The position numbers were made by a program, and so were the translations under genes. Positions 20 through 13,935 of a stretch of 64,000 nt of DNA are shown here, one piece after another; positions within the stretch are counted from its first letter, which is position 1, and each line of letters begins with the position of its first letter. Origin of the DNA: Umezawaea tangerina (GTDB lineage Bacteria; Actinomycetota; Actinomycetes; Mycobacteriales; Pseudonocardiaceae); assembly GCF_003002815.1 (NCBI RefSeq), contig NZ_PVTF01000001.1:310001-374000 (forward strand). The letters are read 5' to 3'. The notes beneath the pieces are model-generated. The model saw only the letters and a list, made by a program, of their open reading frames with translations, was not told where the DNA came from and did not search any database.

Positions 20-1216
20 TCACTCGACCGCCAGTCGTCTGAGGATATCGAGGTTGGCGGCGCAGATCCGGGGCATGTCCAGGTTGTTGTGCACCCACTT
101 GCGGCCCGCCGCGCCGATGTCCGAGGCCAGGTCGGGGTCGTCGAGCAGCTGGTTGATCGACGCCGCCAGCTCGTCGGTGTCGCCGGGGGTGACCAGCAGC
201 GTCTCCTCCCCGTTCGCGATGCGGGCGCAGGAGAAGTAGTCCGCGCGCTCGGCCAGCACGGTGGGGGTGCCCGCGGCCATCGCCTCCAGGCTGGCGATGC
301 CGATGCCGAACCCCTGCAGGTCGTGCACCTCGACGTCGGAGCCCGCCAGCAGGCCGGGGATGTCGGACTTGGGGAGCGCTCCGGTGCAGACGACCGCGTG
401 CAGCACGCCCAGCCGCCGCGCGCGCTCCAGGAACGCGCGGTAGTAGACGCCGCCGACCACCAGGACCTTCGCGTCCGGGTGGCTCGCGAGCACCCGCGGC
501 AGCGCCTCGACGAGCGCCACGCGGTCGCGCACCGGGATCACGTGGCCGAGCGAGGCGATCACCGGGCCGTCGCCGAGGTCGAACCGCGCGCGCAGCGCCG
601 CGCGCTCGGCCTCGCGGTCCAATTCCTCGAACCGGTGCAGTTCGACCCCCACCGGAACCTGTTCGATCCGCTCGGCCGGGATTGCGTACCGGCGCCTGAT
701 GTAGTGGTGGAAGATGCGGTCGATCGCGACCACCGAGGTCGGCCGGATGTGGGCGAGGACCGGGCGCACCACGAGAGCGTCGAGCAGTCTCATCACGAGG
801 TGCGAAAAGCGCATCGGGCTTTGCAGCCGGGTGTGCAGCGTCAACAGCGAGGGGATCCGCCTGCTGCGCGCCCACAACCCGCTCTGCCACGTCAGGTCGA
901 AGAACTGGCCGTGCTGGTGGATCACGTCCGGGCGGAACTCGTCGAGCAACCGGAAAACCCGCTTGCGGTTACCCCAGCGCAACGCGAACGTGATATCGAA
1001 GTTGAACGAGAATCGCGATTCGGGGAGCGTCCACGAGGGCAGGCGGACGATCCGGATACCGTCCCGCACTTCTTCGGCAGGTGCTTTGCGGTAACCGGCG
1101 GCGATCACCAGCACCTCGTGCCCCTGCTCGGCGTAATACCTGCTCAACGTGTCCGCAACATGGGCGCTACCGCCCACCCGAGGGGGGAAGAAGTTGTTGA
1201 CGACGACGATCCGCAC
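20..1216 (-). CDS. GT4-family glycosyltransferase (GT-B fold)
   Basis: Probably transfers a sugar from a nucleotide donor to a cell-envelope glycan or lipid acceptor on the cytoplasmic side. The N-terminus opens with a Rossmann strand and a glycine loop (VVVNNFFPPRVGG), typical of the acceptor domain of GT4 enzymes. The C-terminal half has the donor-domain signature GIASLEAMAAGTP, with the conserved Glu of the E-x7-E region. At about 398 aa the length is normal for GT4. I chose the GTG at 1216 because GGAG lies 8 nt upstream; another GTG at 1231 would add five residues. No signal peptide or clear membrane segment is visible. The upstream GT2 gene is separated from it by a strong hairpin, so the two may be transcribed separately. 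Substrate unknown. Confidence 0.85.
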   Translation of the reverse strand: MRIVVVNNFFPPRVGGSAHVADTLSRYYAEQGHEVLVIAAGYRKAPAEEVRDGIRIVRLPSWTLPESRFSFNFDITFALRWGNRKRVFRLLDEFRPDVIHQHGQFFDLTWQSGLWARSRRIPSLLTLHTRLQSPMRFSHLVMRLLDALVVRPVLAHIRPTSVVAIDRIFHHYIRRRYAIPAERIEQVPVGVELHRFEELDREAERAALRARFDLGDGPVIASLGHVIPVRDRVALVEALPRVLASHPDAKVLVVGGVYYRAFLERARRLGVLHAVVCTGALPKSDIPGLLAGSDVEVHDLQGFGIGIASLEAMAAGTPTVLAERADYFSCARIANGEETLLVTPGDTDELAASINQLLDDPDLASDIGAAGRKWVHNNLDMPRICAANLDILRRLAVE

Positions 1217-1313
1217 CCGGAGGACTCCCACAGTCGGCTGTACCGAAGACCGGACGGACCATCGTGATGATGCGTCCTTGAGGTATTCGGCAGGAACAGC
1301 CGGTCACTGAAGT

Positions 1314-1359: not shown

Positions 1360-2106
1360 CTAGCGGGCGCGGCGCTTGCGGTGCTTCGCGCGTACCTTGA
1401 AAAGACCGATACCCATCTTGTAGGCGTCGTTCACCACGTTGATGGTGCTGCCCCCGCGCGTTTGCTGACCGCGCAGCCGAACCGGGACCTCGACCGGACG
1501 AATTCCGTCCTGCTCGGCGAGGTAGGCCAATTCGGTGGTGAGCAGGAAACCGGGCTCGGTCAATTTGCCGACCACGCCGCGAGCCCATTCACCGTTGAGC
1601 ACGAAAGTGCCCTGCGGGTCGCGCGTGCGCATACCGAGAACGGCGAGCCGGAGCACGAGGAATCCGGTGCTGAGCACCGCGCGCACCAGGCTGCGGTCGA
1701 TTGCCGAGTCCGGGTGCGCCTTCGAGCCGATGAACACCTTGTGCTTGTCCAGGCCCACTTTCCGCGCCTGGTCGAGGTCGTCGAACCCGAAGGGGAGGTC
1801 GTCGGCGGTGAGCACGACGTGGGCGCCCCGGCTGGCCGCGATGCCCATCCGCAGCGCGTTGCCCAGGCCCTTCTCCGAGCTCAGCACCCGCAGCTCGACC
1901 TGCGCGAACTGCCACGACTTCTCGATCGACCGCGCGAGCTCGAGCGTGTTGTCCGTCGACCCGTTCTCGACCACGACGATCTCGTTGCGCTCCCCGTCGA
2001 GGTGCTCCCCGAGTTCCTTCAACGTGGCTTCGAGGCCGTCCGCGCCGTTGTACGCCGGCACGATGTAGCTGAGTGCGACTGGACTGCTAGCCCCTGGCGT
2101 TCCCAC
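1360..2106 (-). CDS. GT2-family glycosyltransferase
   Basis: A GT-A fold, family 2 glycosyltransferase, probably polyprenyl-phosphate or glycan directed. The N-terminus shows the family pattern: YIVPAYN, then VVENGSTDNT, then LTADDLPFG as a variant of the DXD metal/nucleotide site. The usual acidic motif is here ADD. It is about 248 aa, on the short side, with a basic C-terminal tail (KHRKRRAR) and no obvious C-terminal membrane helices. The GTG at 2106 is preceded by AGGGAG at good spacing; a GTG at 2166 would add 20 residues that do not look like family sequence. It is transcribed divergently from the GT-C-like gene at 2253, and both are likely part of envelope glycan assembly. Confidence 0.8.
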   Translation of the reverse strand: MGTPGASSPVALSYIVPAYNGADGLEATLKELGEHLDGERNEIVVVENGSTDNTLELARSIEKSWQFAQVELRVLSSEKGLGNALRMGIAASRGAHVVLTADDLPFGFDDLDQARKVGLDKHKVFIGSKAHPDSAIDRSLVRAVLSTGFLVLRLAVLGMRTRDPQGTFVLNGEWARGVVGKLTEPGFLLTTELAYLAEQDGIRPVEVPVRLRGQQTRGGSTINVVNDAYKMGIGLFKVRAKHRKRRAR

Positions 2107-2252
2107 GTCAACTCCCTGGCAGACTGTGCCGATGCTGGCCAGTTCGTTTCCGGCCTGCGACGGCACGCACCCTATCGTGGGTGCGCGTCGGTGCCGGTGG
2201 CGCCTCTAGTTCTCGGCCGCCAGTGATCGGATCCACGCGAAAGGGCGATGCA

Positions 2253-4499
2253 GTGACTCTGACCGAGAGTCGAGCCGTTGATCTTCCCGATTCCGCCGGG
2301 CCTGGCGACAACGCCACCGGTGAGCAGGGTGGTCGGTGGATCGGTTTCCTCACCGTCCTGGGCGTTGCGGCCTTCGTCGGGATTGTCGCGCAACTGCCGC
2401 TGATCCGTAATCGGATCTTCTATTACTGGGACGATTCGGCGGCCGCGTTTCTGCCGCACTGGTTCAAAATCGGGACCGAGCTGCGCAGCGGCAACTGGCC
2501 GATGCTGGCGCCGGACGCCTGGATGGGCGGCAACTTCCTCAGCGAGGTCCAGCTGTCGCTGTGGAACCCGGTGTCGCTGGCCAACTACGTGCTGGTCTCC
2601 GTCCTGCCGGACCTCGCCGTGGCCGCCACCCTGGTGAAGACCGAGTTCCTCGTCCTGCTCGCGATCGGCACCTACCTGCTGGCCCGCGAGTACGGCGCGA
2701 ACCGCGGTGCGGCGGCCGCCGTCGCCACCGCGCTCCCGTTCTCCGGCTACACCCTCTTCTTCGACGCCTCCGCGTGGGTCGCGGGCCTGATCGGCTTCGC
2801 CTGGCTGCCGTGGGTCTGGTGGGCCGCCCGCCGCGTCGGCACCGGCCGGTCCAACCCGCTGCTGCTGCTCGTCCTGGGCTACCTGGGCATGAGCGTCGGC
2901 AGCCCGTACGGCGCGCTCGGCATCGTGGTCATCCTGCTCGGCGTCGCCGTCGAGCTGCTGGTCCGCAAGAACTGGCCCGGCCTGGTCAGGGTCGTCGTGA
3001 CCGGCGCGATCGTCGGCATGAGCACCCTCGTGGTCTACCTGCCGCTGCTCGGCAGCTCCGCGGTCACCTGGCGCACCGACAGCAAGCTCGACAACAACGG
3101 CTTCCTGGTGCCCGCGCTGTCCGACCTGTTCGGGCTGAGCGCCCCGACGTTCCAGGCCCAGCTGGAGTCGTGGCAGGGCACCGAGGCGTTCACGTTCCCG
3201 ATCACCTACCTGGCCTGGTTCGTCGCCCCGCTGATCCCGTGGCTGAAGTGGTCCGAGCTGCGCACCCGCGCTCGCGACTACCTGGGCCTGTTCATCTTCG
3301 GCACGGTGTACGTGCTGTTCACCATCGGCCCGTCGAACATGGGCATGTTCCGCTGGCCCGCCAGGCTCGTCGAGTACGTGTACCTGCCGGTCGTCGTGCT
3401 GTTCGCGGTCGTGCTGACCAAGGGGCTGCACAAGACCGCGGCGCGCAACCGGGCGATCATCAGCGGTGTCATCGTGCTGGCCGGGTTCTACCTGTCCTGG
3501 GCCTCGCAGCCGCACAGCTTCCAGTACCACGTGGGCGCGGCCGTCGGCGTCGGGATCCTGCTGACCGCGTTCCTCTTCGCGACCCGCCGGGCGCCCAAGT
3601 ACGCGGCGCTCGTCCTGGTCGTCGGCACCGCGGGCGTCCTCGGCTTCCAGCTGATCCACTACAAGGGCAACAACAACGTCAACCCGTGGAACTTCCCCCA
3701 CGACGTGTCCGCGATGCAGGACCGGTTCGACCACCGGTACGAGGGCAGCACGCTGCTCGTCGCCGACACCGGCGTGCTGGCCAAGAACACCGGCGGGGTG
3801 TCGCCCGAGCAGAGCTGGCGCGACGGGCTGTTCGGCGCGCAGTGGGAGGTCGCGGGGGTCCAGGCGCTGAACTCCTACACGGGCCTGGGGTACACGACGT
3901 TCTCCGACGCCCTGTGCATGAACTACTACGGCGGTGTGTGTCCGGGGGCGTTCGACCGGATCTGGCAGGCGACGTCGTCGAAGGTGGACGTGCCGCTCGC
4001 GGACGCGCTGCGGCTGGAGACCGTGGTCGTGGCCAACGGCTACCTGGACGGGCCGACGACCGCGCCCGACGGGTGGTCGGAGAAGGAGCGCACCAAGGCC
4101 GTCACGGTCCTGCACCGCGATGCCCCGCTGGCCTGGGCCGGTGGACGGCTGTCGTACGCGGCGCCCGGTGTGGAGGTCCAGGAGGACAAGGCGACCGGGG
4201 CCGAAGGGGAGACGTCGAAGTACACCGGGTCCGGGACCGTGCTCTACGCGGCGCTGGCCTGGCCGGGGTGGACGGCGACGGTGGACGGGAAGTCGGTCGA
4301 GGTGAAGCAGGGACCCGCGGGGTTGATCCAGCTGGACCTGCCCGCGGCGAAGGACGGCGGGAGCACCGTGGTGCTGGACTTCCAGCCGCCGGGGTTGAGC
4401 CTGGGGTGGAAGGTGACGCTGGTGGCGGTCGTGCTGGGGCTTGGGTTTGCGGTGCTGGTGTTCGTGCGGGAGAGGCGGCGGAGGGTGGTTGTGGAGTAG
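2253..4499 (+). CDS. YfhO-like polytopic membrane protein (GT-C-type)
   Basis: A 748-aa polytopic membrane protein with about a dozen hydrophobic segments followed by an extracytoplasmic C-terminal domain and one last helix near the C-terminus. The first loop after TM1 contains FYYWDDSAAAFLPHW, whose Asp pair is in the position of the acidic catalytic loop of GT-C enzymes. Established knowledge: GT-C and YfhO proteins use polyprenyl-phosphate sugars to glycosylate wall polymers outside the membrane. It is a clear paralogue of the protein at 24216-26279 (shared MGGNF, WNPV-LANY-LVS, SYTG-GY and CMNY blocks). That paralogue sits beside gtrB and gtrA; this copy has no such partners. GTG 2253 is preceded by AAGGG; an upstream frame from 2181 lacks support. 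Acceptor unknown. Confidence 0.75.
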   Translation: MTLTESRAVDLPDSAGPGDNATGEQGGRWIGFLTVLGVAAFVGIVAQLPLIRNRIFYYWDDSAAAFLPHWFKIGTELRSGNWPMLAPDAWMGGNFLSEVQLSLWNPVSLANYVLVSVLPDLAVAATLVKTEFLVLLAIGTYLLAREYGANRGAAAAVATALPFSGYTLFFDASAWVAGLIGFAWLPWVWWAARRVGTGRSNPLLLLVLGYLGMSVGSPYGALGIVVILLGVAVELLVRKNWPGLVRVVVTGAIVGMSTLVVYLPLLGSSAVTWRTDSKLDNNGFLVPALSDLFGLSAPTFQAQLESWQGTEAFTFPITYLAWFVAPLIPWLKWSELRTRARDYLGLFIFGTVYVLFTIGPSNMGMFRWPARLVEYVYLPVVVLFAVVLTKGLHKTAARNRAIISGVIVLAGFYLSWASQPHSFQYHVGAAVGVGILLTAFLFATRRAPKYAALVLVVGTAGVLGFQLIHYKGNNNVNPWNFPHDVSAMQDRFDHRYEGSTLLVADTGVLAKNTGGVSPEQSWRDGLFGAQWEVAGVQALNSYTGLGYTTFSDALCMNYYGGVCPGAFDRIWQATSSKVDVPLADALRLETVVVANGYLDGPTTAPDGWSEKERTKAVTVLHRDAPLAWAGGRLSYAAPGVEVQEDKATGAEGETSKYTGSGTVLYAALAWPGWTATVDGKSVEVKQGPAGLIQLDLPAAKDGGSTVVLDFQPPGLSLGWKVTLVAVVLGLGFAVLVFVRERRRRVVVE

Positions 4500-4648
4500 G
4501 GGGAGGTGTGCGGGGGCGCCCTGGGGTTTCGGCCCTGGGGCGTTTTTGCGTGTTGGGGGGTTGGTCTGTCGGGGTTGGTCCGTTGTGGTCGGTCCGTTGT
4601 GGTCGGTTGGTTGGGGTTGCTTGGGGGGTCGATCGGTGGGGTTGCTTG

Positions 4649-4813: not shown

Positions 4814-4820
4814 AGCGGGC

Positions 4821-4946
4821 TCGCTTTCAGCGTCGTTGGGGGGCGAGCACTGCTCGTTTTCAGCGTCGTTGGGGGGCTTGTGCTGCTCGTTTTCGGCGTC
4901 GTTGGGGGGCTTGTGTTCGCTTCCAGCGTTGTTGAGCGGCTTGCCG
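4821..4946. repeat. Short tandem repeats beside the element, copy 1
   Basis: Four degenerate direct repeats of 33, 33, 30 and 30 bp, each beginning tcg-ttt/tcc-ag and containing gcgtcgttgggggg or a variant. A similar array of 27-bp units follows the second element copy at 45213. Confidence 0.8.
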
Positions 4947-4973
4947 GGTGGGTGGGGTGCTTGGTGGGAAAGC

Positions 4974-5008
4974 GAAAGGGCCCGTGCACTGGGTGCGCGG
5001 GCCCTTTC
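4974..5008 (-). terminator. Hairpin after the dehydrogenase gene
   Basis: A perfect 11-bp inverted repeat (gaaagggcccg / cgggccctttc, 13-nt loop) lies about 17 nt beyond the stop codon of the minus-strand dehydrogenase. Confidence 0.7.
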
Positions 5009-5025
5009 GGTTCTGACCGGGCGTC

Positions 5026-6000
5026 TTAGCCGAGGGCTGAGACGGTGGCGTGGTGGACTGCTAGGTGGGCGGGGAGGATGGCCGCGCGTTCGGCGGTTAC
5101 CTCGGTGGAGCCCGCGCCCTTTTCGAGCAGGTTGAGGAAGTGGTTGAGCTGGGCCGCGAGCGGTTCCGCGCTCTGCATGATGGTCGGGAGCTCGATGACC
5201 GTCTGCTGCTTGTACCCGACGCCGTCGGCGGCGGGGGAGTCGGCGACGTGGCGGTAGATCGTGATGTCCCTGCGGAGCAGGTCGATCTCGATCAGCCGGT
5301 CCAGCTCCAGCACGGAGATCTGGCGGACCTTGCGCTGGGAGATGCGGCTCGCGGAGATGGTCGCGAGGGCGCCGTGCGCGAAGGACATGGTGGCGTCGGC
5401 GCTGTCCTCGGACTTGTTCTCCTTGGACTGCGGCTGGAAGAAGCCGAAGGAGCCCTTGACCGCGGACGGGGCCTCGCCGATGAAGCCGATGGCCAGGTCG
5501 ATGTCGTGGATGAGCAGGTCGGTGGCGACACCGGTCTTGATCCGCGGCACGAACGGGGAGTGGCGCATGGCGTTGACCTGGACGACCTCGCCGATGAACT
5601 GCTTGGCGGTGAGGATGGCCGGGTTGAAGCGCTCGAGGAAGCCGCAGACCAGCGGGAGGCCGAGGCGCTCCGAGGTCTCGACGAGCTCGGCCGACTGCTC
5701 GTAGGTGGCCGCGAGCGGCTTCTCCACGAGGAGGGGCTTGCCCATCTCCAGGACCTGCTTGGCGATGTCGTAGTGCGCCTCGGTGGCCGCCGCGATGACG
5801 ACGGCGTCGACCTTCGCCAGCTCGTCGATCGAGTCGGTGTAGGTGGCGCCGTAGCGCTCGGCGATCTCCTTGCCGATCTCCGCGCGCTGCTCGACGAGCA
5901 GGGTGAAGTCCGCGCGGTCGGACTGGGAGAGCACGCGGGCGTGCAGCGAGCCCATCATGCCCGCGCCGACGAGGGCGATCCTGGGCTTGGCCGTGGTCAC
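5026..6000 (-). CDS. Gfo/Idh/MocA NAD-dependent sugar dehydrogenase (WlbA/GnnA-like)
   Basis: Probably oxidises a hydroxyl of a nucleotide sugar to a keto group for the coupled aminotransferase. The N-terminal Rossmann motif is IALVGAGMMG (residues about 7-16), and the family's catalytic lysine motif VEKPLA is present with Lys94. At 324 aa the length is normal. The GTG start overlaps the aminotransferase stop by 4 nt (GTGA), so the two are translationally coupled. Family knowledge: Gfo/Idh/MocA plus DegT-type pairs such as WlbA/WlbE (on UDP-GlcNAcA) and GnnA/GnnB (on UDP-GlcNAc) make 3-amino-3-deoxy sugars. The LpxA-like gene across the divergent promoter favours a GnnA-type role, by inference. 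A longer open frame extending to 6276 lies inside the aminotransferase gene and is not coding. Confidence 0.85.
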   Translation of the reverse strand: MTTAKPRIALVGAGMMGSLHARVLSQSDRADFTLLVEQRAEIGKEIAERYGATYTDSIDELAKVDAVVIAAATEAHYDIAKQVLEMGKPLLVEKPLAATYEQSAELVETSERLGLPLVCGFLERFNPAILTAKQFIGEVVQVNAMRHSPFVPRIKTGVATDLLIHDIDLAIGFIGEAPSAVKGSFGFFQPQSKENKSEDSADATMSFAHGALATISASRISQRKVRQISVLELDRLIEIDLLRRDITIYRHVADSPAADGVGYKQQTVIELPTIMQSAEPLAAQLNHFLNLLEKGAGSTEVTAERAAILPAHLAVHHATVSALG

Positions 6001-7094
6001 GCGCCGAACACCTCCCGGACGGAAGCGACGATGGTCTCGAGCTCGGCGTCGGTGAGCTTCGGGTGCACGGGCAGCGACAGCGCCTGCTCGGCGACCTTCT
6101 TGGCCACCGGCACGTCGGAGGCGATCACGTCCGCGCGGTCGCGGTAGCAGTCGTAGTCGAACACCAGCTTCGGGTAGTAGATCCCGTTGCCGATGCCCTT
6201 CTCGTTGAGCTTCGCGGACAGCTCGTCGCGGGTCACGGCGGCGTCCTCGCCGACGAGCACCGTGTACTGGTGCCACACGTGCTCGCGGCCCGGCAGCACA
6301 CCGGGGACGGTGAGGCCGGTGATGTCGGCGAGGCCCTTCGACAGCACGTCGGCGTTGCGCTGGCGCGCGGCCGTGAGCGTCGGGAGGTTCTCCAGCTGCG
6401 GGATGCCCAGCGCGGCGTGCAGGTCGGTCAGGCGGTAGTTGTGGCCCGCCATCTCGTACTGGTAGCGGGCGCGCATGCCCTGGTTCCGCATGACGCGCAG
6501 CTTGTCGGCCAGCGCGTCGTCGGAGGTGGTGATCATCCCGCCCTCGGCGGTGGTGATGTTCTTGGTGGCGTAGAGCGAGAAGCAGCCGATGCCGAAGCTG
6601 CCCGCGGCCTTGCCCTCGAACGTCGCGCCGACGGCCTGCGCGCTGTCCTCGACGATGGTCAGGCCGTGCTGCTCGGCGAGCGGCACCAGCTTGCCCATGT
6701 CCGCGGTCTGGCCGTACAGGTGCACCGGCATGAGGACCTTGGTCCGGTCGGTGACCTGCGCGGACACCGCGTCGGCGTCGATGCAGAAGTCGTCGGTGCG
6801 GATGTCGGCGAACCGGGCGGTGGCGCCCGCCTCCAGGATCGCGTTCAACGTCGCGACGAAGGTGAAGGGCGAGGTGATGACCTCGTCGCCCGGCTTGAGG
6901 TCCAGGGCCTGGATGGAGGCCACCAGCGCGGTGGTGCCGTTGTTCACGGCGATCGCGTGGGGGACCCCGGCGACCTTGGCGAAGGCCTCTTCGAAGCGCT
7001 TGACCATGGGGCCCTGGGCGATGACACCGGACCGGAGCACCTCAAGAACCAGCGGCTCCGCGTCTTGGACGTCGACAACGGTGATGGGAATCAT
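5997..7094 (-). CDS. DegT/DnrJ/EryC1/StrS sugar aminotransferase (GnnB/WlbE-like)
   Basis: A PLP enzyme that should transfer an amino group from glutamate to a keto-sugar nucleotide. Family signatures are present: GVIAQGPMVKRFEEAFA near the N-terminus, FTFVATLNAILEAGA, the VEDSAQA aspartate motif, and the PLP lysine in YATKNITTAEGG (Lys178). The length is about 365 aa, as expected. I take ATG 7094 (MIPIT), which matches the usual N-terminus of the family; an open frame upstream to 7172 lacks support. It is first in a two-gene minus-strand operon with the dehydrogenase. The 177-bp gap to the LpxA-like gene must hold two divergent promoters. The sugar substrate cannot be fixed from sequence alone; a 3-keto-UDP-sugar is the best guess. 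Confidence 0.88.
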   Translation of the reverse strand: MIPITVVDVQDAEPLVLEVLRSGVIAQGPMVKRFEEAFAKVAGVPHAIAVNNGTTALVASIQALDLKPGDEVITSPFTFVATLNAILEAGATARFADIRTDDFCIDADAVSAQVTDRTKVLMPVHLYGQTADMGKLVPLAEQHGLTIVEDSAQAVGATFEGKAAGSFGIGCFSLYATKNITTAEGGMITTSDDALADKLRVMRNQGMRARYQYEMAGHNYRLTDLHAALGIPQLENLPTLTAARQRNADVLSKGLADITGLTVPGVLPGREHVWHQYTVLVGEDAAVTRDELSAKLNEKGIGNGIYYPKLVFDYDCYRDRADVIASDVPVAKKVAEQALSLPVHPKLTDAELETIVASVREVFGA

Positions 7095-7271
7095 GCAGCA
7101 GTCTTTCGCTCCGGAGACGGTGGATTGCGTCCGGTACAGTGACTGGTCGTCCCGCCCCTGACGCGTTGCCACACGTTACCCGCCGATTGCGGCCGTGTTG
7201 CCGTGGGTCCACAGCAGGGGGCAGGGCAGTGACCTGGGTCATTCGACGACTTCTGAGCAGGAACGGACCTC

Positions 7272-7970
7272 GTGGCCAACCGCATTCACCCCACCGCCGT
7301 CATCGGCGAAGGCGTCGAGCTGGGCGATGACAACGTCATCGGCCCGTACGCCGTGATCGTCGGGCAGACCAGGATCGGCAGCGGGAACTGGATCGGCCCG
7401 CACGTGTCCATCGGCACCCCCGCGGAGGACCGGACCGGTCCCCACCCGGCCGGATGGGACGGGGAGCTGGAGGGCGCGGGTGTCGAGATCGGCGACCGCA
7501 ACCGGATCCGCGAGTACTTCACGATGCACCAGGGCACCTGGCGCACGACCCGCGTCGGCGACGGCAACTACCTGCTCTCGCGCACCCACCTCGGCCACGA
7601 CTGCCTGGTGGACGACTTCGTCACGCTGGCGTCGGTGCAGCTCGGCGGGCACTGCCACATCTGGTCGCACGCGAACGTCGGCATGGGTACCGTCGTGCAC
7701 CAGAAGGCCGAGGTCGGGCCCGGTGCGATGGTCGGCATGGGCGGCGCGGTCCGCAAGGACATCGGCCCGTTCACCATCTCGGTGGGCAACCCGGCCAGGG
7801 TCTCGGGCATCAACGTGGTGGGCCTGAGCCGCCGCGGGTGCGACGAGGCGACGATCGCGGCGCTGGAGCCGTTCCTCAAGGGGACCGGCGAACTGCCCGC
7901 CTCCGGCGTGCCGGAGGAGCTGGCGACCCTGCTGAAGGCGTGGGCCGACCGCGCCCCCGCCGACCACTGA
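7272..7970 (+). CDS. LpxA-like left-handed beta-helix acyltransferase
   Basis: A 232-aa hexapeptide-repeat acyltransferase that looks like LpxA, the acyl-ACP:UDP-GlcNAc O-acyltransferase, rather than a generic acetyltransferase. It opens with IHPTAVIGEGVELGD, and its middle carries VEIGDRNRIREYFTMHQGT, almost the LpxA signature. The histidines in THLGHDC (His106, His109) match the LpxA His122/His125 pair, the latter being catalytic. His127 in GGHC and His143 in VVHQ match further active-site histidines. The C-terminal GINVVGLSRRG is also LpxA-like. Next to an ACP and a 3-amino-sugar gene pair it probably N- or O-acylates a sugar nucleotide using acyl-ACP. The GTG start has AGGA about 10 nt upstream. 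LpxA belongs to lipid A synthesis in Gram-negatives, so its role here is unusual. Confidence 0.82.
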   Translation: MANRIHPTAVIGEGVELGDDNVIGPYAVIVGQTRIGSGNWIGPHVSIGTPAEDRTGPHPAGWDGELEGAGVEIGDRNRIREYFTMHQGTWRTTRVGDGNYLLSRTHLGHDCLVDDFVTLASVQLGGHCHIWSHANVGMGTVVHQKAEVGPGAMVGMGGAVRKDIGPFTISVGNPARVSGINVVGLSRRGCDEATIAALEPFLKGTGELPASGVPEELATLLKAWADRAPADH

Positions 7971-8002
7971 CCCATCCCCCGAGCACGGAGATCGAGAACA
8001 CC

Positions 8003-8242
8003 ATGGCGCTGAACGACAAGCTTCGCGACGTCTTCGTCGAGGCACTGGGCATCGACGCTTCCGTCGACGTGGAGAACCTCAAGTACCGCGACATCGAGGA
8101 GTGGGACTCCGTCGGCCACATGGCGCTGGTCGCGGCCATCGAGGACGAGTTCGACGTCGAGTTCGCGACCGACCAGGTCATCGACATGAGCAGCTTCAAG
8201 GTCGCCGTCGACATGCTCGAGGGCCTCGGCGCGAAGGCCTGA
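8003..8242 (+). CDS. Acyl carrier protein
   Basis: A 79-aa acidic four-helix carrier protein. The phosphopantetheine attachment motif is WDSVGHM with Ser36, where typical ACPs have DSL. It lies 32 nt after the LpxA-like gene, in the same direction. It differs from a primary fatty-acid ACP in context (no fabD/fabF neighbours) and is probably a dedicated carrier. It would be loaded by the AMP-ligase two genes downstream and would present the acyl group to the acyltransferase or to the LuxE/LuxC pair. About 200 bp separate it from the next gene, so a second promoter is possible. Confidence 0.9.
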   Translation: MALNDKLRDVFVEALGIDASVDVENLKYRDIEEWDSVGHMALVAAIEDEFDVEFATDQVIDMSSFKVAVDMLEGLGAKA

Positions 8243-8443
8243 GCCGATCCACCGGAGCGGTCCGCTCCGCACCTGGGCGCCGTGCGTCCGCGCTCGCGCG
8301 GGCGCACGGCGTTCGCCTGTGCGGGCCGCGCCCGGCCGTCCACTTCCGTGTTTCGGGCCTGCTTCATGCCGGTAACGAGCCGTCTCGGTGGGCAAGTACC
8401 CTCGACGGGGATCCAAGACGTGCCTAACAGGACTGGTTGAACT

Positions 8444-9181
8444 GTGACTGACCTCACCGACAAGGTAGCCATCGTCACCGGCGGCACCAGGGGGATCGGC
8501 CTGGCCACCGTCACCGCGCTGGCCGAGGCGGGTGCGACCGTCGTGCTGACCGGTCGCGACGAGGCCGTCGCCAAGGAGGCCGCGGCGGGCGTCCCCGGCG
8601 GCAGGGTGACCGGCGTGGCCCTCGACGTCACCGACTCCGCGGCCGTGAGCAGCACGATCCGCGCGGTCGCCAAGGAGCACGGCAGGCTCGACGTCGTCGT
8701 CGCGAACGCGGGCGTCCTTGAGGGCGCCCTGGTCGGGATGATGAAGGACGACCTGGTCGAGCGGATGCTGTCGACGAACGTCGCGGGCACGCTCTACACG
8801 GTCCAGGCCGCCGCCCGCGCGATGATGCGCAAGAAGACCGGTTCGATCGTGCTCCTGGCCTCCATCGCCGGTGAGCAGGGCAGCGCGGGCCAGAGCGCGT
8901 ACGCGGCGTCGAAGGCGGGCGTGACCGCCATCGCGAAGTCCACCGCCAAGGAGCTCGGCCGGTACGGGATCCGCGTCAACGCGGTGGCCCCCGGCGTGAT
9001 CGACACCGCGATGACCGCCGCGATGGGCGAAGAAGCCATCGCGGCCAACGTCGAGCAGACCCCGCTCGGCAGGCTCGGCTCCCCGGAGGACGTGGCGAAG
9101 GCCATCCGCTTCCTGGCGGGCGACGAGGCCGCGTTCGTCACGGGCCAGGTGCTCGGCGTCGACGGGGGCCTCGTCCTGTGA
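8444..9181 (+). CDS. FabG-like short-chain dehydrogenase/reductase
   Basis: A 245-aa classical SDR, probably an NADPH-dependent 3-oxoacyl-ACP reductase or a related ketone/aldehyde reductase. The cofactor motif TGGTRGIG is near residue 12, NAG is in the middle, and the catalytic pair is YAASK with Tyr153 and Lys157. The C-terminal GQVLGVDGGLVL is typical of FabG. The GTG start is preceded by AGGA. Its stop overlaps the GTG start of the AMP-ligase by 4 nt, beginning a run of four coupled genes (SDR, ligase, LuxE-like, LuxC-like). It may reduce a beta-keto group on the ACP-bound chain or the aldehyde released by LuxC. Confidence 0.85.
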   Translation: MTDLTDKVAIVTGGTRGIGLATVTALAEAGATVVLTGRDEAVAKEAAAGVPGGRVTGVALDVTDSAAVSSTIRAVAKEHGRLDVVVANAGVLEGALVGMMKDDLVERMLSTNVAGTLYTVQAAARAMMRKKTGSIVLLASIAGEQGSAGQSAYAASKAGVTAIAKSTAKELGRYGIRVNAVAPGVIDTAMTAAMGEEAIAANVEQTPLGRLGSPEDVAKAIRFLAGDEAAFVTGQVLGVDGGLVL

Positions 9182-10590
9182 CGGCGCGCGGTCTGCTCGA
9201 CGGCGGCGGTCGGCTGGTCGACGCCGTCAGCGGTGAGGTGTTCGAACCCGAGGAGCTGCGCGCGCGGGTCGGCGCGGTCGCCGCCGAGCTGGCCGACGTG
9301 CCGCCCGGTGTGCTGTTCGCCCGCACGGACGTCGACGTGGCCAGCGTGCTGCGGTACCTGGCGGCGTTCGAGGCGCACCGCGCCGTGGCGCTGCTGGACG
9401 CGGGCCAGGACCGCGAGGTGCTGCTGGAGCTGGTCGCCCGCTTCCGCCCGGCCGCCGTGCTCGGCGCCGACGGCGACGCCCCCGAGGGGTACCGCGGCGG
9501 TGTCGTCGGCGGCCCCGCGTGGGTCCGCGAGTCGGCCGACGGCGTGACCCCGCACCCCGACCTCGCCGTCCTGCTGCCCACCAGCGGCTCGACCGGCAAC
9601 CCCAAGTTCGTCCGGCTCTCCCGCTCCGCCGTGCTGGCGAACGCCGAGGCCATCGCGGACGTGCTGGGCATCGACGCGGCCGAGGTCGCGCCGACCAGCC
9701 TGCCGCTGCACTACAGCTACGGCATGTCCGTGCTCAACAGCCACCTCGTGCGCGGCGCGACCGTCGTCGTCGAGGGCTCCGGCGTGATGGGCAGGCCGTT
9801 CTGGACGGCGGTCGAGGAGTACAAGATCACCTCGCTGGCCGGCGTCCCGTACCACTACGAGATGCTCAAGCGGCTCAAGTTCGACCCGGCCAAGTACCCC
9901 AGCCTGCGCACCATCACGCAGGCGGGCGGCAAGCTGCGGGACGACCTGGTCGTGCTGTTCAACGACAAGATGCTGGCCGTCGGCGGCCGCATGTTCGTCA
10001 TGTACGGGCAGACCGAGGCGGGCCCCCGCATGTCGACCATCCCGGCGGAACGGCTGGCCGACAAGATCGGCTCGGCCGGTCCGGCGCTGCCCGGCGGCGC
10101 GTTCGTGATCCGCGCCGAGGACGGCACCGAGACCACCGAGCCGGACGTCGTCGGCGAGGTCCTCTACCGCGGCCCGAACGTGATGATGGGCTACGCCGAG
10201 AGCGAGGCCGAGCTGGCCGAGGGCGACACCCGTCACGGCGAGCTGGAGACCGGCGACCTCGGCAGGCTCGACTCCGACGGGTACCTGCACCTCACGGGCA
10301 GGCTCAAGCGGATCGGCAAGGTCTTCGGGAACAGGGTCAACCTCGACGACCTGGAACAACTGCTGCGCGGTTCGGGGTTGGACCTGGGAGCGGCGGCCGC
10401 GGTGCCCGCGGGCGACAAGGTGGTCGTCTGGGTGGAGGACTGCGCCGCCGACACGCGCAAGGCGGCGGCCCGCACGCTCGCGGAGAAGCTGCACCTGCAC
10501 GTGTCCGGATTCGACGTGCGGGACATCGACGCCCTGCCGCTGCTCCCCAGCGGCAAGATCGACTACCGCTCCCTGGAGGGACGGGCATGA
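9178..10590 (+). CDS. AMP-dependent acyl ligase (ANL superfamily)
   Basis: A 470-aa adenylate-forming enzyme that should activate a carboxylic acid as acyl-AMP and pass it to a thiol, here probably the pantetheine of the neighbouring ACP. The ATP-binding loop is LLPTSGSTGNPKFV, the aromatic/acid motif is MYGQTEAGP, the hinge is TGDLGRLDSDGYLHLTGRLK, and the C-terminal catalytic lysine is in LPSGKIDY (Lys460). It is shorter than CoA ligases of 500-550 aa and has a compact N-terminal half. It overlaps both flanking genes by 4 nt. Context (ACP, LuxE, LuxC) favours a fatty acyl or hydroxyacyl substrate over an amino acid, but specificity cannot be read from sequence. Confidence 0.85.
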   Translation: MTARGLLDGGGRLVDAVSGEVFEPEELRARVGAVAAELADVPPGVLFARTDVDVASVLRYLAAFEAHRAVALLDAGQDREVLLELVARFRPAAVLGADGDAPEGYRGGVVGGPAWVRESADGVTPHPDLAVLLPTSGSTGNPKFVRLSRSAVLANAEAIADVLGIDAAEVAPTSLPLHYSYGMSVLNSHLVRGATVVVEGSGVMGRPFWTAVEEYKITSLAGVPYHYEMLKRLKFDPAKYPSLRTITQAGGKLRDDLVVLFNDKMLAVGGRMFVMYGQTEAGPRMSTIPAERLADKIGSAGPALPGGAFVIRAEDGTETTEPDVVGEVLYRGPNVMMGYAESEAELAEGDTRHGELETGDLGRLDSDGYLHLTGRLKRIGKVFGNRVNLDDLEQLLRGSGLDLGAAAAVPAGDKVVVWVEDCAADTRKAAARTLAEKLHLHVSGFDVRDIDALPLLPSGKIDYRSLEGRA

Positions 10591-11654
10591 CAGCCACAGC
10601 AGAAGGTGTCTTCGGACTGGCCCAGGCCGAGCGCGAGGCGGCGCTGCTGCCCGCGCTGACCGAGCTGACCGAGCACCACCGGGCCACCTGCGAGCCGTAC
10701 GACCGCATCCTGGGCTCGCTCGGGTACGCGCACGGCGCGGAGTTCGGCACGGTCGAGGAAGTGCCGTGGCTGCCGGTCCGGATGTTCAAGCACCACGTGC
10801 TCAAGTCCGTGCCGGACGACGAGGTGTTCAAGGTCCTCACGTCGTCGGGCACGACCGGCGCCGAGGTCTCCCGCATCTACCTGGACAAGCAGGCCGCGGG
10901 TGACCAGCCGCGCTACCTGGGCCGCACGCTCCAGGCCGTGCTCGGCGAGAAGCGGCTGCCGATGCTGATGGTCGACACGATCGGCATCATCAAGAACCGC
11001 CGCTCGTTCTCGGCCCGCGGCGCGGGTGTGCTCGGCATGGCGAACTTCGGCCGCCAGCACGTGTACGCGCTCGACGAGGACGACAAGCCGGACGTGGAGG
11101 CCATCAAGGGCTTCCTGGCCAAGCACGGCTCCGAGCCGTTCCTGATCTTCGGCTTCACCTTCATGGTGTGGCAGTACCTCTACGAGGTCGCCCGCGAGCA
11201 CGAGCTGGACCTGTCCAACGGCATCCTCATCCACTCCGGTGGCTGGAAGAAGCTGATCGACCGGGCCGTGGACAACGCGGAGTTCCGGCGCGCGTTCGCC
11301 GCGGACACCGGGCTGACCAGGATCCACAACTACTACGGCATGGTCGAGCAGCTCGGCACCGTGTTCGTGGAGGGCCCGTCGGGCAACTCCCTGTACTGCC
11401 CCGACTTCGCGGACGTCGTGATCCGCGATCCCGAGACGTGGGCGGAGCAACCCGTCGGCGTGCCGGGCGTCATTGAAGTGGTCAGCACCGTGCCGCGCTC
11501 CTACCCCGGCCACGCGCTGCTCACCGAGGACCTCGGCGTCGTGCACGGCGTCGACGACGGCGACTGGCCGGGGAAGCGCTTCTCGGTACTGGGTCGTCTG
11601 CCGCGCGCGGAGGCCCGTGGATGTTCGGACACCTTCAGCGGAGGAGCGGCGTGA
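10587..11654 (+). CDS. LuxE-like acyl-protein synthetase
   Basis: A 355-aa member of the LuxE family, ATP-dependent enzymes that activate a fatty acid and transfer the acyl group to a LuxC-type reductase. The conserved ATP-site segment LTSSGTTGAEVSRIYLDK and the later SGGWKKL and NYYGMVEQLGTVF blocks fit the family. The length matches LuxE (about 370 aa). ATG 10587 overlaps the stop of the AMP-ligase, and the stop overlaps the LuxC-like GTG. No luciferase luxA or luxB homologue is in this operon, so the product is more likely an aldehyde or alcohol for biosynthesis than light. Such pairs also occur in surface-polysaccharide loci, which fits the setting. Confidence 0.85.
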   Translation: MTATAEGVFGLAQAEREAALLPALTELTEHHRATCEPYDRILGSLGYAHGAEFGTVEEVPWLPVRMFKHHVLKSVPDDEVFKVLTSSGTTGAEVSRIYLDKQAAGDQPRYLGRTLQAVLGEKRLPMLMVDTIGIIKNRRSFSARGAGVLGMANFGRQHVYALDEDDKPDVEAIKGFLAKHGSEPFLIFGFTFMVWQYLYEVAREHELDLSNGILIHSGGWKKLIDRAVDNAEFRRAFAADTGLTRIHNYYGMVEQLGTVFVEGPSGNSLYCPDFADVVIRDPETWAEQPVGVPGVIEVVSTVPRSYPGHALLTEDLGVVHGVDDGDWPGKRFSVLGRLPRAEARGCSDTFSGGAA

Positions 11655-12883
11655 GCCCCATCCAGCAGCGGTTCCCGGCCGGGCCGGACGTCGAGGTCGC
11701 CGACCTCCTCGCCGCGGTGACCGCCGAGCCCGAAGGCGGACGGCTCAAGGTCGGCGACCCCCGGATCGTGGACTTCATCGTGAAGTTCGCCCGCAAGCTG
11801 CTCGCCCCCGCGACCGCCCGTCGGTTCCCGGAGCTGGCGTCGCTGGGCTTCTTCCTGCGCCGCGGTGAGATCACCAAGGCCCTGGCGGGCCTGGAGACGA
11901 CCGGCGACGAGCTGCGCTTCCCGCGTGGACTGGTGTTCCACGTGCCACCGGCCAACGTGGACACGATCTTCGTGTACTCGTGGGCGCTGTCCGCGCTGGC
12001 GGGCAACCCCAACGTCGTGCGGATCTCCGCCCGGTCCGCCGGTGCCGCCGAGACCGTGATCGCGTGCCTGAACGAGGCGCTCGCCGAAGCGGACCCGATC
12101 GTCGCGCAGACCCAGCGGATGGTCACCTACGGCCGCGACGAGGCCGTGACGTCGGCGCTGTCGGCCGCGTGCGACCTGCGGGTCATCTGGGGCGGTGACC
12201 GGTCGGTCGCCGAGATCCGCAAGAGCCCGATCGCGCCGCACGCCCGCGACCTCACGTTCCCGGACCGGGCGTCGTTCGCCGCGATCTCCGTCGACGGCTG
12301 GGCCAACGCCACCCCGGAGCAGCGCCGCGACGCCGCCACCGGGTTCTACAACGACTCGTACTGGTTCGACCAGGCCGCCTGCTCGTCGCCCCGCACCCTG
12401 TTCTGGGTCGGCGACGAGGCGGCGGCCCAGGTCGGCCGCACCGAGTTCCTCGCCCTGCTGGGCGAGGTCGTGGCCGCCAAGCACTTCGTGGTCGAGCCCG
12501 CGATGGCCGTGCAGAAGCGGGTGTCCGCGTACGGCGTCGCCGCCGAGGGCCACGCGACCGCGATCCACTTCAACGGCAACGCGGTCGCCACGCTGGAGCT
12601 GAGCGACCCCGCCGACGTGCCGCGCGAGTGGCTCGGCGTCGGCACGTTCCCGCAGGCGACGCTGACGGGGCTGGACGAGTTCGTGCGCATCGCCGAGCGC
12701 AAGGACCAGACGTTCAGCCACTTCGGCTTCCAGCGCGAGGAGCTCGTCGAGTTCGCCCACGCCCTCGCGGGCCGGGGCATTGACAGGATCGTCCCGTTCG
12801 GATCTGCTCTCAGCTTCGCCGCGGTCTGGGACGGCTACGACCTGCTGTCCGAGTTCAGCCGCCTCACCACGGTGACCGGCTGA
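11651..12883 (+). CDS. LuxC-like acyl-CoA/acyl-protein reductase
   Basis: A 410-aa protein of the LuxC family (aldehyde-dehydrogenase-like fold), which reduces an acyl thioester to an aldehyde with NADPH. The nucleophilic cysteine expected to carry the acyl group is Cys244 in DQAACSSPRTLFWVG, matching the family's conserved C-S-P block. The stretch FHVPPANVDTIFVYSWALSA is also typical. The GTG at 11651 overlaps the LuxE-like stop by 4 nt; an upstream ATG at 11621 lies inside luxE-like coding and is not preferred. With the preceding LuxE-like protein it would form a fatty-acid reductase complex. The final gene of the group starts about 47 nt downstream. Confidence 0.87.
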   Translation: MSPIQQRFPAGPDVEVADLLAAVTAEPEGGRLKVGDPRIVDFIVKFARKLLAPATARRFPELASLGFFLRRGEITKALAGLETTGDELRFPRGLVFHVPPANVDTIFVYSWALSALAGNPNVVRISARSAGAAETVIACLNEALAEADPIVAQTQRMVTYGRDEAVTSALSAACDLRVIWGGDRSVAEIRKSPIAPHARDLTFPDRASFAAISVDGWANATPEQRRDAATGFYNDSYWFDQAACSSPRTLFWVGDEAAAQVGRTEFLALLGEVVAAKHFVVEPAMAVQKRVSAYGVAAEGHATAIHFNGNAVATLELSDPADVPREWLGVGTFPQATLTGLDEFVRIAERKDQTFSHFGFQREELVEFAHALAGRGIDRIVPFGSALSFAAVWDGYDLLSEFSRLTTVTG

Positions 12884-12930
12884 TACCCATGGCCGAGCCC
12901 ACTTCGCCCCCCGACATCACCGGAGACCCG

Positions 12931-13935
12931 ATGAAGGTCCAGGACGACCTGGCCACCACGGACGACACCGCGGCCGAAGTCGCCGCGCCGTCCAGCCGCA
13001 AGGCGACCATCATCGCCTGGGCCAAGCGACTGCTCGTCCTCCTGGTGCTGGCCGCGGCCACCTACCAGGTCGTCGACCAGTGGAACGCGGTCTCGAAGAC
13101 GCTGCTCTCGCTGTCGTGGCAGTCGATCGTGCTGTCGATGCTCGCGGTGTACGCGGGCGTCTGGCTCGGACCGGTGGTCTGGAAGGTCGTGCTGTCGGAC
13201 CTCGGCGCCCCGGTGCGGGTGTCGGAGGCGTCGAAGTTCTACCTCGTCGGGCAGCTCGGCAAGTACGTGCCCGGCGCGGTGTGGGCCGTGCTGCTGTCGA
13301 TGGAGCTGGCCAAGGAGGCGGGCGTCAGCCGCGCGCGGAGCTTCACCGCGGGCCTGATCGCCACCGGCCTCGGCGTGGTCGCCTCGATGATCACCGGGCT
13401 GCTCGCCCTGCCGATCATCCTCGACGGCGACCACCCGGAGCTGCTGTGGCTGTTCGCGCTCCTGGTCGTGGGCCTGGTGTTCCTGCACCCGGTGCCGCTG
13501 ACCTGGCTCGTGTCGACGGTCCTCAAGCTGCTCCGCAAGGCCCCGCTGCCGCACCGCCTCAACGGCTTCGCCATCTTCAAGGGCGTCGTGCTGGCGGTCG
13601 CGATCTACGTGATGTTCGGCGTGCACCTGTGGCTGCTGGCCACCTCGGTCGGCGCGCCCGGCCTCAACACGCTGATCCTGTGCGCGGGAGCCATGGGCGT
13701 GTCGATGACCGCGGGTCTGATGGCGTTCTTCCTGCCGTCCGGCCTGGGTGCCCGCGAGGCCGTCATCGTCGCCGCGCTGGCGACCGTGATGCCCGCACCC
13801 CAGGCGCTCGCGCTCGCCGTGGTGTCGCGCCTGGTGTTCACCATCGCCGACCTCAGCTCCGCGGGCATCGCGGCCGGCTTCGTCTGGTTGCAGGGCAAGC
13901 GCGGCGTCGCGCCGACCGCCCCCGTCGTCGACTAG
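12931..13935 (+). CDS. LPG-synthase/AglD-type flippase-like membrane protein
   Basis: A polytopic inner-membrane protein of about 334 aa with roughly eight hydrophobic segments, of the family related to the membrane half of MprF and to AglD (UPF0104). Family members move or synthesise lipid-linked substrates. The motif GQLGKYVPGAVWA after the second hydrophobic region and FFLPSGLGAREA near the C-terminus are the family's most conserved blocks. I choose ATG 12931, which has GGAG seven nucleotides upstream; ATG 12889 would add 14 residues and has no clear ribosome binding site. It closes the LpxA-LuxC gene group and could move the acylated sugar-lipid across the membrane, which is inference. 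It has no cytosolic lysyl-transferase domain. Confidence 0.78.
   Translation: MKVQDDLATTDDTAAEVAAPSSRKATIIAWAKRLLVLLVLAAATYQVVDQWNAVSKTLLSLSWQSIVLSMLAVYAGVWLGPVVWKVVLSDLGAPVRVSEASKFYLVGQLGKYVPGAVWAVLLSMELAKEAGVSRARSFTAGLIATGLGVVASMITGLLALPIILDGDHPELLWLFALLVVGLVFLHPVPLTWLVSTVLKLLRKAPLPHRLNGFAIFKGVVLAVAIYVMFGVHLWLLATSVGAPGLNTLILCAGAMGVSMTAGLMAFFLPSGLGAREAVIVAALATVMPAPQALALAVVSRLVFTIADLSSAGIAAGFVWLQGKRGVAPTAPVVD

What the first reader, a model, noticed from the sequence alone, without database searches (positions are those of the whole stretch)
5026..12883. LpxA-like acyltransferase, ACP and 3-amino-sugar genes in a bacterium without lipid A
A Gfo/Idh dehydrogenase and a DegT aminotransferase (5026-7094) face an LpxA-like protein with conserved active-site histidines (His106, His109, His127, His143) and an ACP. 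In Acidithiobacillus and Leptospira, GnnA and GnnB make UDP-GlcNAc3N, which LpxA then N-acylates. The same three activities side by side in a Gram-positive suggest an N-acylated 3-amino sugar on a wall polymer or glycolipid, an unexpected chemistry. Known WlbA/WlbE pathways on UDP-GlcNAcA are the main alternative.
Basis: partly seen in the sequence, partly recalled or inferred. Interest (0 to 1): 0.78.

Follow-up and report, generated by a model that had tools for sequence, protein, structure and literature searches.

The report
LpxA-type amino-sugar acylation in actinobacteria
A Gram-positive bacterium and some of its relatives carry a gene set that looks built to make an unusual 3-amino sugar and hang a short acyl chain on it with an enzyme otherwise known from the outer-membrane lipid A of Gram-negative bacteria.

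Summary
Window 5026-8242 encodes a GnnA-like Gfo/Idh dehydrogenase, a DegT aminotransferase, an LpxA-family protein with its catalytic histidines, and an ACP. No LpxC or LpxB was found in the genome. In 86 LpxA orthologues picked by similarity, 71 have at least four of these five genes nearby, and 68 of 69 complete sets read LpxA-ACP-FabG-ligase-LuxE-LuxC. Of 59 relatives, 16 have the LpxA: 13 with a strong GnnA match, 3 with a weak one in the same locus; 2 of the other 43 have a strong GnnA. The dehydrogenase fits GnnA much better than WlbA. The residue capping the LpxA acyl pocket is Met or Leu in all 86, so the chain should be short. The same five genes occur with pseudaminic-acid genes in Aeromonas (published) and Nonomuraea (seen here), so they look like an exchangeable acyl supply for amino sugars. 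Best reading: UDP-GlcNAc to UDP-GlcNAc3N, N-acylation with a short ACP-bound acid, then an envelope glycan. Substrates, acyl group and final glycan are inferred, not shown. New variant of a known kind.

The parts
5026..6000 (-). GnnA-like Gfo/Idh dehydrogenase (324 aa), proposed UDP-GlcNAc 3-dehydrogenase
   Evidence: Best PDB match 7bvj/7bvk E 3e-26, 215 bits with the family profile; NCBIfam UDP-GlcNAc 3-dehydrogenase 146 bits, cut-off 450; His165 in 63 of 63 orthologues
5997..7094 (-). DegT/DnrJ/EryC1/StrS aminotransferase (365 aa), proposed GnnB
   Evidence: Pfam 401 bits; Lys178 in 114 of 114 cluster members, second DegT genes included; shares four bases with the dehydrogenase gene
7272..7970 (+). 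LpxA-family acyltransferase (232 aa), proposed N-acyltransferase of the 3-amino sugar
   Evidence: NCBIfam LpxA 181 bits (cut-off 226) and 160 bits (cut-off 231); PDB 4eqy E 1e-34; catalytic His 86 of 86
8003..8242 (+). stand-alone acyl carrier protein (79 aa)
   Evidence: PF00550 24 bits; Ser36 in 73 of 73 orthologues
8444..9181 (+). FabG-like SDR reductase (245 aa)
   Evidence: Tyr153/Lys157 in 70 of 70
9178..10590 (+). AMP-forming acid ligase (470 aa), proposed loader of the ACP
   Evidence: PF00501; best PDB matches oxalate-CoA ligases, closely followed by other ligases; Arg284, Asp360 and Lys460 in 72 of 72
10587..11654 (+). LuxE-like acyl-protein synthetase (355 aa)
   Evidence: PF04443 148 bits; Cys346 in 73 of 73
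11621..12883 (+). LuxC-like acyl reductase (420 aa, start predicted)
   Evidence: PF05893 92 bits; Cys254 in 72 of 72
12889..13935 (+). polytopic membrane protein, LPG_synthase_TM family; possible lipid-linked sugar flippase
   Evidence: PF03706 49 bits; cluster present in 72 of 95 loci, six loci counted twice
20..1231 (-). GT4 glycosyltransferase
   Evidence: Pfam; cluster present in 67 of 95 loci, six loci counted twice
1360..2166 (-). GT2 glycosyltransferase
   Evidence: Pfam; cluster in 8 of 95 loci
2181..4499 (+). YfhO-like membrane protein, possible GT-C glycosyltransferase
   Evidence: PF09586 43 bits over its C-terminal end only, searched as 2256-4499

Best explanation
A cytoplasmic pathway for an N-acylated 3-amino sugar. 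Step 1 (inferred from family): the Gfo/Idh enzyme oxidises C3 of UDP-GlcNAc. Step 2 (inferred): the DegT enzyme transaminates the ketone to give UDP-GlcNAc3N. Step 3 (inferred): the AMP-ligase loads a short carboxylic acid on the ACP; LuxE and LuxC reduce a carboxyl group of that acid or its precursor to an aldehyde and the FabG-like SDR reduces the aldehyde or a keto group, leaving a short hydroxylated acyl-ACP. Step 4 (inferred): the LpxA-family enzyme moves this acyl group to the 3-amine. Step 5 (inferred): glycosyltransferases and the membrane protein build and flip an envelope glycan. Shown here: the genes, their conserved linkage and order, intact catalytic residues, no LpxC or LpxB match, and the recurrence of the same five genes near another amino-sugar pathway (pseudaminic acid).
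For: LpxA, not another hexapeptide enzyme: NCBIfam LpxA 181 bits against 91 for NeuD; PDB LpxA E 1e-34, first non-LpxA entries at 8e-12, WlbB-type entry 3mqg at 5e-7. GnnA: the profile gives 7bvj 215 bits, next 135, 3q2k 84. LpxA with GnnA across 59 relatives: strong GnnA in 13 of 16 LpxA-positive and 2 of 43 LpxA-negative genomes; the other 3 LpxA-positive genomes have a weak match inside the LpxA locus. LpxA with ACP: 70 of 72 adjacent on one strand. Gene order 68 of 69. Catalytic Ser/Cys/Lys/His invariant in all orthologues counted. Short acyl pocket: the position of E. coli Gly173 is Met in 77 and Leu in 9 of 86. Same five genes, listed in the same order, in Aeromonas flagellin glycosylation islands with pse genes (PMC7874193, passages) and within 10 kb of PseB/PseC/PseI-type genes in Nonomuraea. 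The published mass of the Aeromonas pseudaminic-acid derivative, 376.14 Da, equals di-N-acetyl-Pse with one acetyl replaced by C4H6O3, 376.148.
Against: All scores for LpxA and UDP-GlcNAc 3-dehydrogenase lie below the curated NCBIfam cut-offs. The E. coli QDLK loop of LpxA is replaced by a segment with His58/Trp62 (83 of 83 with letters), so the acceptor may differ. 14 of 86 orthologues have none of the five genes nearby and one has three (one of the 14, L128, is cut off 1 kb downstream), so the block is not needed for whatever LpxA does there. LuxE occurs in only 9 of 59 relatives. In three of the 16 LpxA-positive relatives (G011, G028, G035) GnnA lies far from LpxA, and in G011 and G028 the LpxA is a divergent copy with an ordinary QDL loop; without these two the strong-GnnA count is 11 of 14 against 4 of 45. 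GnnB cannot be told from 4-aminotransferases by profile. No glycan structure supports any step. The 376 Da match is a composition only, the Aeromonas island also has PseH, and the same glycan ends in an unknown 102 Da moiety that would fit C4H6O3 as well. The substrate of LuxE/LuxC is unknown. Orthologue counts are dominated by Amycolatopsis and are not independent.
Confidence: 0.55

Rival explanations
1. A Wlb/Wbp-like route: the sugar is first oxidised to UDP-GlcNAcA and the trio makes a 2,3-diamino uronic acid, or the product is oxidised afterwards as in euryarchaea.
For: The four haloarchaeal GnnA/GnnB loci opened sit beside a nucleotide-sugar dehydrogenase; the genome has two UDPG_MGDP_dh genes elsewhere.
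Against: The dehydrogenase matches WlbA structures much less well than GnnA (84 and 75 against 215 bits; identities of these PDB entries are recalled); the acyltransferase is LpxA, not WlbB; no UDPG_MGDP_dh match on the window's contig.
Confidence: 0.13
2. The LpxA-like enzyme and the ACP/FabG/ligase/LuxE/LuxC block serve different products: LpxA acetylates or acylates the amino sugar from a general donor, while the block makes an aldehyde or a second acyl group.
For: 14 of 86 LpxA orthologues have none of the five genes nearby; the block occurs without LpxA near pse genes, in a Deinococcus polysaccharide locus and, rearranged, in Rhizobium with a transketolase pair.
Against: LpxA and ACP are adjacent on one strand in 70 of 72 loci and the order is kept in 68 of 69; in 59 relatives all 9 genomes with LuxE also have an LpxA, though in one of them (G011) only a divergent LpxA on another contig.
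Confidence: 0.17
3. The cluster makes a secreted small molecule, not an envelope glycan.
For: The organism is rich in carrier-protein assembly lines (145 PF00550 matches); ACP plus adenylating enzyme is typical of such pathways; the distribution is patchy (LpxA in 16, LuxE in 9 of 59 relatives).
Against: Glycosyltransferases, membrane proteins and the galactan genes Glf and GlfT2 lie in the same stretch; a Glf cluster member lies in 10 of 95 loci, at least one locus counted twice.
Confidence: 0.12

Closest known systems
GnnA/GnnB/LpxA of Acidithiobacillus and Leptospira (UDP-GlcNAc3N branch of lipid A; recalled)
   Same: Same three enzyme families; 7bvj (recalled as GnnA) is the best match of the dehydrogenase; catalytic His of LpxA kept
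   Different: No LpxC or LpxB match; Met/Leu at the acyl-ruler position and a changed acceptor loop; an ACP and ligase of its own; shorter protein (232 aa; 262 in E. coli 1lxa)
Archaeal UDP-GlcNAc 3-dehydrogenase pathway (NF040723)
   Same: Best NCBIfam equivalog for the dehydrogenase (146 bits); haloarchaeal genes lead the plasmid hits for GnnA and share the top with Streptomyces genes for GnnB
   Different: The four archaeal loci opened carry a nucleotide-sugar dehydrogenase, three of them also a small acyltransferase, and no LpxA
WlbA/WlbE/WlbB and WbpB/WbpE/WbpD (UDP-GlcNAc3NAcA; recalled)
   Same: Gfo/Idh + DegT + hexapeptide acyltransferase logic
   Different: Weak matches of dehydrogenase and acyltransferase
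ACP, FabG, AMP-synthetase, LuxE, LuxC genes of Aeromonas group II and enterobacterial flagellin glycosylation islands
   Same: Same five activities, listed in the same order for Aeromonas (PMC7874193) and named together for enterobacteria (PMC4875605) (passages)
   Different: There with flagellin glycosylation genes, pse genes in Aeromonas; here with GnnA/GnnB and LpxA
LuxC/LuxE fatty acid reductase of luminous bacteria
   Same: LuxE and LuxC families with a conserved candidate acyl cysteine each
   Different: Far below the NCBIfam lux equivalog cut-offs (57 against 550 and 34.5 against 750 bits); no luciferase gene among the block's members

Membership tests
LpxA (acyl-ACP--UDP-GlcNAc acyltransferase) | Catalytic His125 and His160/Gln161 of the E. 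coli enzyme | tested here: met
   86 of 86 orthologues for each
LpxA (acyl-ACP--UDP-GlcNAc acyltransferase) | Score over the curated NCBIfam cut-off | tested here: not met
   181 bits against 226; 160 against 231
LpxA (acyl-ACP--UDP-GlcNAc acyltransferase) | Genome encodes further lipid A steps (LpxC, LpxB) | tested here: not met
   No match in the own genome; LpxD and LpxK not searched
LpxA (acyl-ACP--UDP-GlcNAc acyltransferase) | Uses acyl-ACP | tested here: inconclusive
   An ACP gene is adjacent in 70 of 72 loci that have both; no assay
LpxA (acyl-ACP--UDP-GlcNAc acyltransferase) | Fold: left-handed parallel beta-helix | tested here: inconclusive
   Hexapeptide repeats by Pfam; the predicted model gave no PDB match at E <= 0.001
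GnnA / UDP-GlcNAc 3-dehydrogenase | Closer to GnnA than to WlbA/WbpB | tested here: met
   215 against 84 and 75 bits; entry identities recalled
GnnA / UDP-GlcNAc 3-dehydrogenase | Score over the curated NF040723 cut-off | tested here: not met
   146 against 450; two haloarchaeal proteins scanned also fall short, 196 and 234
GnnB (3-aminotransferase) | Groups with 3- rather than 4-aminotransferases | tested here: inconclusive
   2oga (DesV, recalled), PerA, QdtB and WbpE entries score 334-378 bits, 7b0d 398
WlbA/WlbB pathway | WlbB/WbpD-type acyltransferase and a UDP-GlcNAc 6-dehydrogenase in the locus | tested here: not met
   3mqg 33 bits against LpxA 123; UDPG_MGDP_dh matches only on contigs C6 and C11
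LuxCDE fatty acid reductase | Acyl cysteines of LuxE and LuxC | tested here: met
   Cys346 73 of 73; Cys254 72 of 72; their equivalence to the lux cysteines is recalled
LuxCDE fatty acid reductase | Curated NCBIfam cut-offs for LuxE and LuxC | tested here: not met
   57 against 550; 34.5 against 750

The most novel reading that the evidence does not exclude
A movable five-gene module (ACP, SDR, AMP-ligase, LuxE, LuxC) makes a short reduced acyl group, perhaps a C4 dihydroxy- or omega-hydroxyacyl group made by LuxE/LuxC reduction of a small dicarboxylic acid, and hands it on ACP to whichever amino-sugar acyltransferase is at hand: an LpxA-family enzyme acting on UDP-GlcNAc3N in Pseudonocardiaceae, others on pseudaminic-acid precursors in Aeromonas and Nonomuraea. 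It would be carboxylate reduction by lux-type enzymes used for glycan decoration, and LpxA chemistry outside lipid A in a Gram-positive.
Probability: 0.3. Interest if true: 0.75.

Novelty: new variant of a known kind. Interest (0 to 1): 0.6.

Why it matters
If true, LpxA, a standard marker of lipid A, also works in Gram-positive envelope biosynthesis, and LuxE/LuxC relatives have a job outside luminescence that recurs in several phyla. It predicts an acylated diamino sugar in Amycolatopsis, Lentzea and relatives, which are well-known antibiotic producers, and gives a direct test for the lux-like genes of flagellin glycosylation islands.

Tried and rejected
Structure prediction of the LpxA-like protein from 24 family sequences gave mean pLDDT 75. 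A Foldseek search of PDB had no match at E <= 0.001; in the 50 rows shown LpxA chains appear at E 0.17 and above, behind unrelated repeat proteins. I treat the model as uninformative, but it does not support the fold.

An earlier count of neighbours under-counted LuxE and LuxC because overlapping hits were filtered; I replaced it by clustering of called ORFs. One search used 95 loci: the 80 named ones and 15 of the 17 unnamed ones; the two left out (L056, L057) hold divergent LpxA copies. Six of the 95 are the same loci fetched twice, recognised by equal contig lengths, which leaves 89; three of these (L049, L136, L146) had no ORF in the LpxA cluster, which leaves 86. The order count did not test the strand of LpxA (one locus, L115, has it on the other strand). 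One alignment contains a stray 11-base row that I added by mistake; counts for the ligase come.

The co-occurrence table counts weak GnnA matches only where they lie in the LpxA locus; 39 of 60 genomes have some match at E <= 1e-15, most of them ordinary relatives of the Gfo/Idh family as far as identity shows.

The Rhizobium protein annotated as an LpxA-type enzyme scores 153 bits with NeuD and 52 with LpxA, so I do not count it as LpxA. The Shewanella sfmABCDE flagellin genes looked like a parallel but are a different gene set. A Legionella plasmid lpxA region, looked at as a lipid A reference, showed lpxA next to fabZ. A PADLOC scan of LpxA and LuxE was empty. A blastn search of a Nonomuraea luxE against E. 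coli genomes found nothing, which says little at that sensitivity. I saw no paper on an LpxA enzyme or a 2,3-diamino sugar in Pseudonocardiaceae: one search listed 3 papers, seen as titles and abstract starts, and one search listed 20 of 371, none of those 20 holding 'LpxA'; these searches do not show absence. Papers: passages only of PMC7874193, PMC4875605, PMC9290775 and PMC3958885; abstract, outline and passages of PMC3765264; all others search listings. Recalled, from no call: functions of E. coli LpxA residues (ruler Gly173, QDLK loop), the names of PDB entries 7bvj, 3q2k, 3q2i, 3mqg and 2oga, the Acidithiobacillus, Leptospira and Methanococcus pathways, and which genera belong to Pseudonocardiaceae.
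Full report
What is there. The window lies in a 10.68 Mb actinobacterial genome. The run continues with a FabG-like SDR, an AMP-forming ligase, LuxE, LuxC and a polytopic membrane protein up to 13935. The dehydrogenase and aminotransferase genes share four bases; SDR/ligase, ligase/LuxE and LuxE/LuxC also overlap as predicted. LuxE occurs once in the genome. The ACP is the last of the 145 PF00550 matches listed (22.9 bits), so it is a divergent carrier.

Is it LpxA? The protein scores 181 bits with the NCBIfam LpxA model and 91 with NeuD. LpxA crystal structures lead the PDB list (E 1e-34); the first other sugar acetyltransferases follow at 8e-12 and the WlbB-type entry at 5e-7. In 86 orthologues the E. 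coli His125, His160 and Gln161 equivalents are invariant, Arg204 is kept in 85, and Gly173, recalled as the acyl-chain ruler, is Met in 77 and Leu in 9. Met at that place is recalled to limit other LpxA enzymes to about ten carbons. The QDLK loop of E. coli, recalled as an acceptor contact, is replaced by a segment with His58 and Trp62 (83 of 83 with letters). The protein falls short of the curated LpxA cut-offs, and the genome has no LpxC or LpxB match. A predicted structure did not help. By sequence it is an LpxA relative working outside lipid A, with a changed acceptor site and probably a short acyl group.

Is it the GnnA/GnnB route? A profile of 17 dehydrogenases gives 215 bits to 7bvj (recalled as Acidithiobacillus GnnA), 135 to the next entry, and 84 and 75 to 3q2k and 3q2i (recalled as WlbA). 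NCBIfam's best equivalog is the archaeal UDP-GlcNAc 3-dehydrogenase, below its cut-off for the window protein (146 of 450) and also for the two haloarchaeal proteins scanned (196 and 234). The 30 best plasmid hits of the dehydrogenase are haloarchaeal, and the 25 best of the aminotransferase are haloarchaeal and Streptomyces. Four haloarchaeal loci opened have the pair beside a nucleotide-sugar dehydrogenase; one Streptomyces locus has a DegT and Gfo/Idh pair without one in view. The aminotransferase profile does not decide between 3- and 4-amination. I favour UDP-GlcNAc as substrate, with a uronic acid variant as the main rival.

Linkage. In 60 genomes including our own, 31 match the LpxA query at E <= 1e-3, but only our own and 16 relatives at E < 1e-25. 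Of the 16, 13 have a strong GnnA (E < 1e-80) and 3 a weaker one (30-37% identity) in the LpxA locus; of the 43 others 2 have a strong GnnA. In three of the 13 (G011, G028, G035) the GnnA lies far from LpxA, and in G011 and G028 the LpxA is a divergent copy; counting these two as negative gives 11 of 14 strong against 4 of 45. Nine of 59 relatives have LuxE, all among the 16; in G011 LuxE lies about 6 kb from GnnA, not near its divergent LpxA. Relatedness makes the Fisher values too small to be taken literally. An even sample of 396 genomes of the phylum has 5 with a match at E <= 1e-20, our own included, so the gene is concentrated near this family. The named scan kept the best 80 of 320 relatives: many Amycolatopsis, with Kibdelosporangium, Lentzea, Saccharothrix, Actinoalloteichus, Thermocrispum and others, three Micromonosporaceae, two Yinghuangia and one Frankiaceae bin. 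Among 86 unique loci 71 have at least four of the five block genes, one has three and 14 have none; 68 of 69 complete blocks read LpxA-ACP-FabG-ligase-LuxE-LuxC. This set was chosen by similarity to the window, so these are not species frequencies. Of the 14 without the block, 6 have a member of the GnnA cluster in the locus (L052, L053, L054, L130, L133, L135) and some others a more distant one, which suggests that the trio is the core and the block an add-on that sets the acyl group.

What the five-gene block may do. It has intact catalytic residues in every copy counted: ACP Ser 73 of 73, LuxE Cys 73 of 73, LuxC Cys 72 of 72, ligase Lys460, Asp360 and Arg284 72 of 72, SDR Tyr and Lys 70 of 70. 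The same five genes, listed in the same order, lie in Aeromonas group II flagellin glycosylation islands with pse genes (PMC7874193), are named together for enterobacterial islands (PMC4875605), and lie in this order in a Deinococcus plasmid polysaccharide locus. In Nonomuraea gerenzanensis the block lies some 4.5 kb downstream of a group with PseB (494 bits, cut-off 408), PseC (412, cut-off 423.5), PseI (434, cut-off 340) and a PseG-like gene (120, cut-off 154). The authors of the two papers suggest a liposugar. I suggest instead a short acyl group. The ligase is nearest in the PDB to oxalate-CoA ligases, though only 9 bits ahead of a non-ribosomal peptide synthetase entry, and has an invariant Arg284 where the two printed oxalate ligases show Leu. 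The LpxA pocket is capped. The 376.14 Da pseudaminic-acid derivative of A. piscicola AH-3 fits one acetyl replaced by C4H6O3 (376.148), while a mono-hydroxybutanoyl swap gives 360.153. The unknown terminal 102 Da moiety of that glycan would also fit C4H6O3 (102.032), so which of the two the block makes, if either, is open.

Where the sugar goes. The locus carries GT4 and GT2 glycosyltransferases, a YfhO-like membrane protein and a possible flippase. Galactan genes Glf and GlfT2 begin 13.5-15 kb downstream of LuxC in the window, and a Glf cluster member recurs in 10 of 95 loci, at least one counted twice. In many Amycolatopsis loci a second DegT, a GalE-like epimerase and a hexapeptide acetyltransferase-like gene lie nearby; the nearest homologue of that epimerase in our genome is 36% identical and on another contig. 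This favours an envelope glycan or glycolipid but does not name it; the patchy distribution leaves room for a specialised product.

Verdict. It is a new variant of a known kind, with a bolder reading about an exchangeable lux-type acyl module.

Noticed in passing
L065 (Nonomuraea gerenzanensis, NZ_LT559118.1), 2-14333: Pseudaminic-acid genes (PseB, PseC, PseI, PseG-like) with the ACP-FabG-ligase-LuxE-LuxC block downstream; the 11.85 Mb record is filed as a plasmid and has 10 annotated features.
   Followed up: partly
L064 (Rhizobium anhuiense plasmid), 5170-17353: A rearranged block with two transketolase genes, NeuD-type acyltransferase, a small ACP-like protein, ligase, DegT, LuxE, LuxC, SDR, GMC oxidoreductase and FabZ; perhaps another product in which an aldehyde meets a transketolase.
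   Followed up: partly
window 22808-29758: GT2, GtrA, a large membrane protein without Pfam match, Glf and GlfT2: an arabinogalactan-type galactan locus.
   Followed up: no
window 13998-15902 (-) and 18943-20709 (-): Two large PIG-L-type proteins (25.7 and 47 bits; the first is under the Pfam cut-off); a DUF6541 membrane protein lies next to the second.
   Followed up: no
L057 (unnamed relative G028), 9983-11694: Two LpxA-like genes in tandem, the first with a GGEPQDLS loop as in ordinary LpxA, in an actinobacterium.
   Followed up: no
window 42542-44922: Stretch with several short ORFs of similar, proline- and valine-rich sequence on the minus strand.
   Followed up: no
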